Assembly: GCF_001269985.1 (NCBI RefSeq)
Contig: NZ_BBZB01000001.1
Span: 4,006,935-4,070,934, forward strand
Reading direction: 5' to 3'
Length of the DNA: 64,000 nt
Origin: Pseudoalteromonas sp. '520P1 No. 423'
Lineage (GTDB): Bacteria; Pseudomonadota; Gammaproteobacteria; Enterobacterales; Alteromonadaceae
Position 1 is the first letter of the stretch. Each line of letters starts with the position of its first letter. Positions 41,511 through 58,345 of the stretch are shown in pieces. Below the pieces are notes generated by a model that saw nothing but the letters and a program-made list of their open reading frames with translations, was not told the DNA's origin and did no database searches. The position numbers were made by a program, and so were the translations under genes.

Positions 41511-41614
41511 ATTAATTTTGTTTACCCTTCGTTTATGATTTTTTAAAACATTACTTTTCAAAAATTTAATAAAAATTTAAGTTAGACAATTAACTATAAA
41601 AATGACTCAAATAT

Positions 41615-42142
41615 TTAAGGGATGATTGCATTTACAACCTTACCGTTGAATAAGTTATAATCAAAAAGCTTATTTTGACCTCTAAAATACATACACCCTG
41701 TTACATTCTTCTTTGTATCAAACATAGCATCTATACGCAATGCTTTTAACACTTGCTGTGACTGCATGTTGAGCAATAGGGCTTTACAATCTACTTGTTT
41801 TGTAGCTTGGGTTTTACCATTTTGGCTTAAATTTATAGGTCAACCGACTTCATTTATGATAAAGCTCAACTCACCTTTACTCTTCAAATCTAAAGAATCG
41901 ATCAGTTGTAATGTAATTATAGCGTTTTTACTTTCTAACCATTTACCATGAATTTCACTGATACTTTGAGAAAACTCAGCAACAGATTGATTATCTGTTA
42001 CTTTATCGACAGAATCTAAAAAACCAATAATATATCGACTAAAATGACCAAAAAATACAATAACTAATATAAAAAACACACTAACATAAAATAATTTCCA
42101 TTTATGCGGCTTGTGATCAAAGTTAGTTTTATATTTAGCCAT
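41615..42142 (-). pseudogene. mshF: MSHA biogenesis gene mshF interrupted by an in-frame TGA
   Basis: The frame starts M-A-K-Y-K-T-N-F with a membrane helix at about 15-40 and runs to residue 100, where I-N-E-V-G is followed by TGA (41842-41840). The same frame then continues without further stops for 74 codons (P-I-N-L-S-Q-N-G ... V-D-C-K-A-L-L ... G-C-M-Y-F-R-G ... N-A-I-I-P) to TAA at 41615. A TGG (Trp) one base away would restore a 175-aa protein of normal MshF size. AAAGG precedes the start. It is either a recent nonsense mutation, a readthrough case or a sequence error. A truncated 100-aa protein may still be made. Confidence 0.82.
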
Positions 42143-42160
42143 ATGAATTAACCTTTTATT

Positions 42161-43226
42161 GCTGACATTATATCCCGTATTGATAGGTGAATTTACCTAA
42201 CTCTCTCTGCAACTTAACCTTTATGAATACTAACCTTTTATTGCTGACATCATGTCCCGTATTGAGAGGTGAATTTACCTAACTCTCTCTGCAACTTAAC
42301 CTTTATGAATACTAACCTTTTATTGCTGACATCATGTCCCGTATTGAGAGGTGAATTTATCTAACTCTCTCTGCAACTTAACCTTTATGAATACTAACCT
42401 TTTATTGCTGACATTATATCCCGTATTGAGAGGTGAATTTACCTAACTCTCTCTGCAACTTAACCTTTATGAATACTAACCTTTTATTGCTGACATCATG
42501 TCCCGTATTGAGAGGTGAATTTACCTAACTCTCTCTGCAACTTAACCTTTATGAATACTAACCTTTTATTGCTGACATTATATCCCGTATTGAGAGGTGA
42601 ATTTACCTAACTCTCTCTGCAACTTAACCTTTATGAATACTAACCTTTTATTGCTGACATCATGTCCCGTATTGAGAGGTGAATTTACCTAACTCTCTCT
42701 GCAACTTAACCTTTATGAATACTAACCTTTTATTGCTGACATTATATCCCGTATTGAGAGGTGAATTTACCTAACTCTCTCTGCAACTTAACCTTTATGA
42801 ATACTAACCTTTTATTGCTGACATCATGTCCCGTATTGAGAGGTGAATTTACCTAACTCTCTCTGCAACTTAACCTTTATGAATACTAACCTTTTATTGC
42901 TGACATTATATCCCGTATTGAGAGGTGAATTTACCTAACTCTCTCTGCAACTTAACCTTTATGAATACTAACCTTTTATTGCTGACATCATGTCCCGTAT
43001 TGAGAGGTGAATTTACCTAACTCTCTCTGCAACTTAACCTTTATGAATACTAACCTTTTATTGCTGACATTATATCCCGTATTGAGAGGTGAATTTACCT
43101 AACTCTCTCTGCAACTTAACCTTTATGAATACTAACCTTTTATTGCTGACATCATGTCCCGTATTGAGAGGTGAATTTACCTAACTCTCTCTGCAACTTA
43201 ACCTTTATGAATACTAACCTTTTATT
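42161..43226 (-). repeat. Tandem array, 13 units of 82 bp, between mshG and mshF
   Basis: Thirteen 82-bp units (phase points every 82 bases from 42161) follow head to tail, nearly identical. Each contains a copy of the last codons of mshG (minus strand GACATGATGTCAGCAATAAA-AGGTTAG); the real mshG end at 43214-43241 is the fourteenth copy. Units carry either GACATGATGTC or GATATAATGTC, and from 42325 on they alternate strictly, giving a 164-bp higher-order period. Each unit has AGGTAAATTCACCT flanked by GAG / CTC, a stem-loop. The array widens the mshG-mshF gap to about 1.07 kb. Confidence 0.97.
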
Positions 43227-44437
43227 GCTGACATCATGTCCCACATAGGTGTAAATATACCTAGAGCTAATACAAGTACCATGCCTGCTACAATAGAAAT
43301 TAATATGGGTTCTATTTTTGCTGTTAGGCTTTTTAAATCAAAATCGACTTCACGTTCATAAAACTCTGCTGATTCCTGTAGTAGCTCATCAACTTGACCT
43401 GTTTCCTCACCTACCGCAACCATTTGCAATACAAGCTGAGAAAACAAACCACTGTTACGAGATACCCTCAACAAGCTTTCGCCTTTTTCTATGCCACGAC
43501 GCATATCAATGACTTTATGAGCCATATGCGCATTATCAACGGCTTCTGATACTAAAGTAAGCCCTGTTGTCATAGGTACACCTGAGCGTAATATCATGGC
43601 AAAACTTCGGCTATAACGAGATAATAACGAACGTTCAATAATACTACCTACTAAGGGAATTTTTAATTTAATACGATCCCATTTTAATCGCCCGACTTCA
43701 GAGGCGATGTAGTTACGTGCAATCACACCCGTTGCTGCCATGCTACCTAATACCGCGCCCCAATAATTCACCATAAAATCTGAAGTAGAAATTAGAATAC
43801 GCGTCATCAGAGGCAATTCTGCATTGAATTTTTTAAACATATCCGCAAAGGTGGGAATTACAAAAATGTTTAAAATAAACATCGCTGCGATTAAAGCAAA
43901 AATTACAAAGATAGGATAACGCATCGCAGATTTTATTTGCTTTCGGGTTTCTTGCTCTCGTTCAAAATAAGTCGCTAATTGCTCAAAGGCATCTTCTAGC
44001 TTACCGGTACTCTCACCTACCATCACAATAGACACCATAAGTCGGTTAAATACCTTTTTATGAGATGCCATAGCAGTAGATAAATTTCGACCTTGCTCTA
44101 ACTGCACAACTAAATCTTTGAGGGTTTCGCTAAAGCGTTTATGGGTTGTGGTTTCGGCTAATCCGATTATTGCTCTAATAATCGGAATACCCGCTTTCAT
44201 TAACGAGTACATTTGACGAGAAAAAATTATTAAATCTTCTAACCCAACTGGTTTTTCAAATAAATCATTAATATCAAAACTAGCAGAATCGGATGATTTT
44301 TTTGTTTCAACAATGCGCATTGGTATGCATTGCTTTTTTAATAAACTATCAGCTGCTGCTGCTTGGTTTGTTGCCTCTAGTGTGCCCTTAATTAATTTAC
44401 CTTGGCTATCCTTAGCCTGATAAGTGAAAAATGCCAT
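43214..44437 (-). CDS. mshG: MSHA platform protein MshG (PilC/GspF family)
   Basis: A 407-aa inner-membrane protein that anchors the assembly ATPase and helps insert pilins. It has two GspF domains (about 70-195 and 275-395) with L-M-K-A-G-I-P-I-I-R-A and I-L-R-S-G-V-P-M-T-T-G, and three membrane helices. N-terminal Y-Q-A-K-D-S-Q-G-K-L-I-K-G is typical. Its start follows the mshE stop directly with no gap. Its last codons (M-M-S-A-I-K-G) are the source of the 82-bp tandem array behind it. Confidence 0.95.
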   Translation of the reverse strand: MAFFTYQAKDSQGKLIKGTLEATNQAAAADSLLKKQCIPMRIVETKKSSDSASFDINDLFEKPVGLEDLIIFSRQMYSLMKAGIPIIRAIIGLAETTTHKRFSETLKDLVVQLEQGRNLSTAMASHKKVFNRLMVSIVMVGESTGKLEDAFEQLATYFEREQETRKQIKSAMRYPIFVIFALIAAMFILNIFVIPTFADMFKKFNAELPLMTRILISTSDFMVNYWGAVLGSMAATGVIARNYIASEVGRLKWDRIKLKIPLVGSIIERSLLSRYSRSFAMILRSGVPMTTGLTLVSEAVDNAHMAHKVIDMRRGIEKGESLLRVSRNSGLFSQLVLQMVAVGEETGQVDELLQESAEFYEREVDFDLKSLTAKIEPILISIVAGMVLVLALGIFTPMWDMMSAIKG

Positions 44438-57907: not shown

Positions 57908-58087
57908 ACTAAGTTATAAAAAATAAAACACTATAAAAACAACAAGATAAAACAAATACTTAAAAATATTTAGTAATTAACAATGCTAAAGTATTCTAGC
58001 CAGTATAAATTTTGGTTAATTTAACCACTACAAATAGTCTAATTGACCAACTGATTTGAAGGAGAATTTATAGTCATTTTTAGGTTA

Positions 58088-58164
58088 GAGGTTCGAGGTT
58101 CGAGGTTCGAGGTTCGAGGTTCGAGGTTCGAGGTTCGAGGTTCGAGGTTCGAGGTTCGAGGTTC
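58088..58164. repeat. Heptanucleotide microsatellite, 11 x GAGGTTC
   Basis: Eleven perfect copies of GAGGTTC, preceded by a degenerate TAGGTTA. It lies about 180 bases upstream of the pspA promoter and about 180 bases after the 37-aa gene, outside any supported gene. Confidence 0.98.
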
Positions 58165-58345
58165 GAAAATATTATTCAAGATGTTTGTTTTTCGAGGAGT
58201 AATATGAATTTTTGAAGATTAATTTTGCTGGATAAAAAAACAGAATGAATATTTATGATTTTTGCAAAGTATATAAGTATTAAGATCTCATACATGTAAT
58301 CACTTAAATAAAGTCGACATTGTTTAAGGCAACGATTTCAGACTA

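What the first reader, a model, noticed from the sequence alone, without database searches (positions are those of the whole stretch)
42161..43226. 82-bp tandem array with a 164-bp higher-order period made from the end of mshG
Thirteen near-identical units separate mshG from mshF. Each carries the mshG stop-codon region, and two unit types (GACATGATGTC and GATATAATGTC) alternate from the third unit on, so the array grew by duplicating dimers. Each unit can form an RNA stem. Inside an operon this may tune expression of everything downstream (pilins included) through copy-number change.
Basis: seen in the sequence. Interest (0 to 1): 0.8.

Follow-up and report, generated by a model that had tools for sequence, protein, structure and literature searches.

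The report
Tandem array of a gene's tail
Between two pilus-assembly genes of a marine bacterium the last bases of the first gene are repeated head to tail fourteen times; a close relative and many species of the distant genus Aeromonas also carry extra copies of the tail of the same gene, so this looks like a recurring by-product of DNA duplication at a tolerant gene junction rather than a switch.

Summary
In a Pseudoalteromonas (nearest mshG relatives: NBT06-2 and P. denitrificans), 13 complete 82-bp units plus a 29-base fourteenth (window 43243..42149, minus strand) fill the mshG/mshF junction; types run A A B A B A B A B A B A A B. The unit occurs only here in the genome. The proposed function is weakly supported: the unit folds no better than shuffled sequence, no terminator-like site lies in the array, mshF has an in-frame stop, and in V. 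cholerae the pilins form a separate operon (PMC4624765, passages; no own promoter was found here). What is new is recurrence: two tail copies in NBT06-2, a partial copy in 1 of 3 Motilimonas, and at least one extra copy in 24 of 36 Aeromonas junctions. Gene-tail duplication is frequent genome-wide in two of three sampled Aeromonas (16/321 tails against 2/300 heads in one); in the window's genome it was seen at mshG (1/618) and, as arrays, at two tRNA-Thr genes. Best reading: local tandem duplication across a gene junction, which leaves both neighbours whole, then dimer growth; probably no regulatory role.

The parts
43214..44437 (-). mshG (407 aa, T2SSF platform protein); its last 30 bases, 43243..43214, open the first unit
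   Evidence: ORF; Pfam T2SSF E 1.3e-56; tail
42178..43243 (-). array: 13 complete 82-bp units in transcript order A A B A B A B A B A B A A
42149..42177 (-). partial 14th unit (type B): the tail copy that now puts AAAAGG in front of mshF
42178..42259 (-). unit 13, the only complete unit with A at column 76; the NBT06-2 copy has A at the aligned place; read as the oldest complete unit
42998..43161 (-). first A-B dimer (units 2 and 3), the 164-bp higher-order period
41840..42142 (-). mshF first piece, 100 codons, ended by an in-frame TGA
   Evidence: ORF; 44% identity over 78 aa to the intact P. denitrificans ORF
41618..41839 (-). mshF second piece in the same frame after the TGA (74 codons)
   Evidence: 43% identity over 72 aa to the C-terminal part of the P. 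denitrificans ORF

Best explanation
The array is a tandem-duplication product of the mshG/mshF junction. Shown: the unit is 29 bases of the mshG end (with the stop) plus 53 other bases, repeated without indels. Inferred: an old duplication took the end of mshG (about 50 bp) with some junction sequence. A duplication that starts inside the tail of one gene and ends before the start of the next leaves both genes whole, because the first copy closes mshG and the last copy supplies the sequence ahead of mshF, so it is hardly selected against. One pair of neighbours diverged (types A and B) and the array then grew by repeated duplication of that 164-bp pair through slippage or unequal recombination, while the end units kept older states. 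The same class of event has recurred at this junction in Motilimonas and Aeromonas. In this genome the array most likely has no regulatory role; the decay of mshF may have made the junction still more tolerant.
For: Exact 82-bp periodicity and dimers. The unit aligns with the mshG end over 52 columns (score 63). NBT06-2 carries a second tail copy 73 bp on; the left flank of that copy resembles the window's last complete unit (P 0.0028) more than unit 2 (P 0.013). 24 of 36 Aeromonas junctions have an extra copy at score 26 or more, 18 of 36 at 40 or more. Among ORF tails of 80 oriented mshG loci, 4 of 954 have a downstream copy at score 34 or more and all four are mshG. In Aeromonas G174 16/321 gene tails, 2/300 heads and 0/224 middles are duplicated (tails against heads Fisher p 0.0013). 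In 21 tail pairs from four genomes, mismatches by codon position are 34:38:83, near the 1:1:2 that I would expect if the copy drifts freely while the gene keeps only silent changes. In the own genome, arrays of 80-bp units start inside two tRNA-Thr genes. No special fold, no Rfam match.
Against: Extra mshG copies in Aeromonas differ far more at silent-type columns than at gene-invariant ones (0.42 against 0.07 within arrays; about 0.09 if the often changed column 3, set apart there, is counted), which free drift of local copies does not give. Only mshG (1 of 618 tails at score 40) shows the effect among protein genes in the sampled own genome (a second tail scored 38, and one gene head scored 81), so mshG looks like a hot spot that tolerance alone does not explain. 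One Aeromonas, G512, has only 1/111 doubled tails. Left of the 29-base core the likeness of the unit to mshG is weak when tested alone (P 0.03; 0.197 unanchored; NBT06-2 copy against its gene P 0.08), and likeness to the mshF start is not significant (P 0.22 and 0.70). No promoter-like site ahead of mshB was found.
Confidence: 0.68

Rival explanations
1. Copy-number dial: units act as RNA stems or spacing elements that lower or raise expression of mshF and the pilins; slippage changes the number and gives phase-like variation.
For: Position inside the assembly operon; easily slipping repeats; copy number differs between related species (14 tails in the window, 2 in NBT06-2); no promoter-like site was found ahead of mshB on the transcribed strand, so the pilins might be co-transcribed.
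Against: Ordinary fold; no terminator-like site in the array; mshF interrupted; pilin genes form a separate operon in V. cholerae (PMC4624765 passages).
Confidence: 0.12
2. Ribosome relay: in each unit a 14-codon reading frame (TTG start, AAAGG five bases ahead) ends in TGA or TAA overlapping an ATG that opens the MSAIKG frame, so ribosomes leaving mshG could re-start unit after unit and keep the mRNA covered up to mshF.
For: 13 of 13 units keep this arrangement, and both unit types keep the stop/start overlap (TGATG or TAATG). In 47 Aeromonas copies at least one ATG of ATGATG is kept in all 47 (those copies were found with a match that includes these columns).
Against: The units are near-identical by recent duplication, so 13 of 13 is one observation. 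In 45 Aeromonas copies found without these columns, ATGATG is not better kept than other gene-invariant columns (260/270 against 465/495, Fisher p 0.18). mshF is broken here.
Confidence: 0.08
3. The tail is an attachment site: a mobile element recombines at the end of mshG and leaves tail copies behind.
For: Recurrence at one gene end in three families and a kept tail sequence.
Against: No match to the array in phage (near) or plasmid (distant) records; no exact match of two tail patterns in viral contigs; in all 36 Aeromonas junctions an ORF of 152-214 aa, taken as mshF, starts within 314 bp of the mshG stop, which leaves no room for a recombinase gene between the copies.
Confidence: 0.05
4. 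Assembly artefact.
For: Tandem arrays are often mis-sized; the record of P. denitrificans has a run of N at this very place.
Against: The genome is in two contigs, units carry private and ordered variants, and relatives have copies of their own.
Confidence: 0.04

Closest known systems
Bacterial minisatellite / VNTR loci (recalled as a class)
   Same: Direct head-to-tail units, near-identical, dimeric higher-order period, interior homogenised and end units different.
   Different: The unit contains the 3' end of the upstream gene, and the same gene end is repeated in other genera with other units.
tRNA-tail arrays such as the tyrT (rtT) repeats of E. coli (recalled; searches listed no paper on them)
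   Same: Each unit holds the 3' end of the gene before it. The window's own genome has two such arrays at tRNA-Thr.
   Different: Here the tail is of a protein gene with its stop codon.
REP/BIME palindromic repeats (recalled)
   Same: Intergenic, inside operons, unit able to fold.
   Different: Single locus, 82-bp unit, no unusual folding.
mshG-tail copies of Aeromonas
   Same: Same gene, same junction, tail with stop repeated one to several times; 57-bp units, 4.5 copies in A. fluvialis.
   Different: Different spacer, shorter unit; copies keep gene-invariant positions.

Membership tests
Tandem repeat / minisatellite (VNTR) | Contiguous direct repeats of one unit of more than about 10 bp | tested here: met
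   82-bp period, 13.5 copies, 97% matches, 0% indels
Tandem repeat / minisatellite (VNTR) | Copy number differs between isolates of one species | not testable with these tools
   One genome per species held; between species 14 and 2 tails, and a run of N in a third
Gene-tail array (tRNA-tail type) | Array begins inside the 3' end of a gene and every unit repeats that end | tested here: met
   Unit 1 starts in mshG; all 14 copies carry GTCAGCAATAAAAGGTTA
REP/BIME | Short palindromic element dispersed at many places in the genome | tested here: not met
   14 places, all in this array; fold z -0.2
CRISPR | Repeats separated by unique spacers | tested here: not met
   Units contiguous and identical over the full 82 bp apart from five columns
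Known structured RNA (Rfam) | Match to a covariance model | tested here: not met
   0 matches at E up to 1 in 41600-43800
Attachment site of a mobile element | Element with recombinase bounded by copies of the tail | tested here: inconclusive
   No phage, plasmid or viral-contig match; an ORF taken as mshF within 314 bp in all 36 Aeromonas junctions; no full survey for islands

The most novel reading that the evidence does not exclude
The tail copies behind mshG are not junk but a live reservoir: they exchange sequence with the end of mshG (within a cell and between species), are kept as coding-type sequence, and feed back into the gene, so the junction is a long-lived recombination cassette shared by several families. 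The Aeromonas copies fit this: within an array they differ about six times more at silent-type columns than at gene-invariant ones (0.42 against 0.07; nearly five times if the set-apart column 3 is counted), while tail copies of other genes show only about 2.3 to 1 (83 mismatches at third positions against 34 and 38). For 26 of 48 copies another species' gene tail fits the variable columns better than the own gene.
Probability: 0.12. Interest if true: 0.75.

Novelty: new variant of a known kind. Interest (0 to 1): 0.45.

Why it matters
Tandem arrays in operons are often read as expression dials. Here the comparison points to a simpler rule: duplications that run from a gene's tail into the gap are tolerated, duplications of gene heads much less, and one junction (mshG/mshF) has been hit again and again. 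If the rule holds it gives a null model for judging intergenic arrays, and the unexplained excess in Aeromonas, with its coding-like conservation at mshG, makes the source of such duplications a question that can be tested.

Tried and rejected
Looked for and not found: an RNA structure better than chance; an Rfam family; phage, plasmid or viral carriers of the unit; significant likeness of the unit's other 53 bases to the start of mshF (tempting by eye, P 0.22 and 0.70); ATG codons kept better than other fixed columns in Aeromonas copies; a promoter-like site on the transcribed strand ahead of mshB, which would have supported a separate pilin operon here. I considered that tail copies are scars of imported alleles (both sequences live genes before they met); the codon-position counts 34:38:83 in other genes do not need it, the mshG counts might.

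Weak points of my own counts. In one search, the 24 loci L010-L033 were not oriented, so those on the minus strand were read in a wrong frame; only the 80 oriented loci L039-L118 count (79 tested, L040 skipped for its run of N: 4 at score 34 or more, L117 at 32). L010 and L039 are the same genome. In one search a greedy ORF choice lost mshG in Aeromonas; one search replaced it without overlap filter, so its 954 ORF tails (own genome 547, with 2 hits, mshG 63 and one tail in L146 at 38; P. denitrificans plus NBT06-2 221, with 1 hit, mshG of NBT06-2) include spurious ORFs. In one search the mshF start is an ORF guess, so some copies (for example in L233) are cut off and undercounted. The 36 Aeromonas junctions are 30 loci and 6 stretches; of the 37 genomes one had no pattern match; they are related species, not independent events. 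The first Aeromonas control (25 of 696 at score 34) used unfiltered ORFs; (16 of 321 at score 40) is the better figure, and one of its 16 is mshG itself, as is one of the 3 in G046. G512 gave 1/111 or 1/107 (other training), G249 3/63 (four stretches only). Number of Aeromonas copies differs by rule of detection: 39, 47, 45, 48. The two tRNA-Thr arrays come from one 20-kb stretch that I happened to sample. One search used 21 pairs: 15 of the 16 from G174 and 2 of the 3 from G046 (the mshG pair left out in both), 3 from G249, 1 from G512. That genus g51 of the genome handles is Aeromonas rests on the contig and junction of A. fluvialis (L101, L230). The run of N in the P. denitrificans record may be an assembly gap or a stretch masked by the collection; I cannot tell, and my first wording took it for a gap. 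For that reason, and for the missing promoter ahead of mshB, I set the main reading to 0.68 and the dial to 0.12.

Literature: full-text searches listed no paper that by its title deals with repeats at mshG or gene-tail duplication in Aeromonas; one search listed 10 of 595; this covers only the open-licence library held. Papers seen as passages only: PMC4624765, PMC7096442, PMC9532999, PMC7439477. PMC173786 is not held.

Full report
What is there. On the coding strand mshG ends with TGGGACATGATGTCAGCAATAAAAGGTTAG (43243..43214) and mshF starts at 42142. Between them lie 13 complete 82-bp units and a 29-base fourteenth. Tandem Repeats Finder gives period 82, 13.5 copies, 97% matches, no indels. 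Variation among the complete units is confined to five columns; unit types run A A B A B A B A B A B A A B, an alternation of 11 units that 0.33% of permutations reach. The genome, 5.39 Mb in two contigs, holds the unit only here (14 places).

Whose genome. mshG is 93% identical to Pseudoalteromonas sp. NBT06-2 and 92% to P. denitrificans DSM 6059. Upstream lie an MshEN-domain ATPase, a TPR protein, an AAA protein and a secretin, downstream N-methyl pilin genes; the msh names follow gene order and are recalled.

Relatives at the same place. NBT06-2 has two copies of the tail, 73 bp apart, and, by eye, only remnants of mshF. The P. denitrificans record has a run of N that begins inside the mshG tail and ends beside another tail-like sequence; it may be an assembly gap, as an array would cause, or a masked stretch. 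An intact 237-aa ORF like MshF follows. The next relatives (L041, L042, L012; mshG 73-77%) show no second tail (by eye; L041 and L042). In the genus, 9 of 108 genomes match the tail pattern at all; only the window's genome (14) and NBT06-2 (2) match more than once. The left flank of the NBT06-2 copy is most like the window's last complete unit (P 0.0028, against 0.013 for unit 2), and unit 13 alone has the base seen there. I read this as an old duplication whose end unit is preserved while the interior was re-made.

The same gene end in other families. Screening 79 of 80 oriented mshG loci found extra tail copies at score 34 or more in four: NBT06-2, Motilimonas eburnea (1 of 3 Motilimonas there), Aeromonas fluvialis and A. 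caviae, with A. dhakensis just below at 32 (its other 24 rows are not relied on). A. fluvialis has an array of 57-bp units, 4.5 copies (sequence). A pattern search of 394 genomes of the order hit 12; by the matched sequences 10 of them repeat the mshG tail (the window's genome, Motilimonas G046 and eight Aeromonas), two are unrelated. Of 37 Aeromonas genomes 36 have the pattern of the mshG tail; of these 36 junctions 24 show an extra copy at score 26 or more, 18 at 40 or more. One of them also holds a run of N (L242). No other gene of the 80 loci does this (4 hits in 954 ORF tails, all mshG); 306 internal stretches of mshG gave none at 34.

Is it special to mshG? Gene calls on sampled DNA, score 40 or more. 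Own genome: 1/618 tails (mshG), 1/595 heads, 0/392 middles. P. denitrificans 0/132 tails, 0/126 heads. NBT06-2 1/106 (mshG), 0/103. Aeromonas G174 16/321 tails (one is mshG), 2/300 heads, 0/224 middles; tails against heads Fisher p 0.0013. Aeromonas G512 1/111 and 0/107; G249 3/63 and 0/58. Motilimonas G046 3/103 (one is mshG) and 0/99. Others: G059 0/128, G221 0/80, G040 0/98 (but 1/81 middles), G036 0/47 tails. So in two of three sampled Aeromonas about one gene tail in twenty is doubled, while in the window's genome mshG stands alone among protein genes. But that genome also has 80-bp arrays that start inside two tRNA-Thr genes (array 794-1233 of L151 within tRNA-Thr 751-826; array 392-581 within tRNA-Thr 349-424), the same architecture. 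The sampled 864 kb hold several other arrays of four or more units (periods 40-218); among arrays with units of 20 bp or more the mshG one has the most copies.

Why tails. A tandem duplication from inside gene 1's tail to before gene 2's start leaves gene 1 complete in the first copy and gene 2's approach complete in the last. A duplication of a head puts a false start in front of the gene. Selection alone can therefore filter a general duplication process into tail copies. The codon-position counts of 21 tail pairs, 34:38:83 (63 silent and 66 replacing codon changes), fit drifting copies beside conserved genes. This is inference, but it needs no new machinery.

What does not fit. At mshG in Aeromonas, copies of one array differ at 0.42 of silent-type columns but 0.07 of gene-invariant columns (47 pairs). 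Column 3, invariant in the genes but often changed in the copies, was set apart there (0.47); with it the second figure is about 0.09. By my reckoning a clock-like neutral model gives at most about 2 to 1. 34 of 39 copies resemble their own gene more than the average other gene, yet for 26 of 48 some other species' gene fits the variable columns better. Either the gene and its copies trade sequence and alleles move between species, or the copies are held as coding sequence. I cannot decide.

Function in the window. Against a dial: fold z -0.2, no terminator-like site in the array, broken mshF, separate pilin operon in V. cholerae (PMC4624765, passages). For it: no promoter-like site ahead of mshB on the transcribed strand, so co-transcription of the pilins is not excluded here. 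A ribosome relay through the units is possible on paper (13 of 13 units), but the 13 units are one recent event, and the Aeromonas copies show no extra care for the ATG codons.

Verdict. The wider finding, recurrent duplication of one gene's tail in three families and a high rate of tail duplication in some Aeromonas, is what deserves attention.

Noticed in passing
window 41618-42142 (minus): mshF is split by an in-frame TGA after 100 codons; the same frame goes on with a MshF-like C-terminal part. Intact relatives exist. In NBT06-2 (L039, between mshG and mshB) only remnants are seen, by eye.
   Followed up: partly
L247-L266 (Aeromonas G174), L316-L317 (G249), L276 and L281 (Motilimonas G046): Gene 3' tails of 33-113 bp are duplicated downstream of many genes (16/321 tails against 2/300 heads in G174; lengths); in some of the 15 contexts printed a terminator-like hairpin follows the copy, by eye.
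   Followed up: partly
L151 349-581 and 751-1233 (own genome, C1 about 1800350-1801240): Two arrays of 80-bp units begin inside tRNA-Thr genes within a tRNA-Thr/tRNA-Phe cluster: tRNA-tail arrays.
   Followed up: partly
L166 5916-6973 and 13852-14009, L149 10950-12362, L145 3516-4223, L167 6671-7127: Other arrays in the own genome with units of 40-218 bp, several built, by eye, around a TTCCCGATAAAA..CTTCGGGAATGAC-like palindrome.
   Followed up: no
L040 8292-8784 (P. denitrificans): A second array, 47 bp x 10.5, further down the msh region.
   Followed up: no
window 58082-58166: Heptamer array AGGTTCG, 12.1 copies, 98% matches, a unit length that could shift a reading frame if it lies in a gene.
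   Followed up: no
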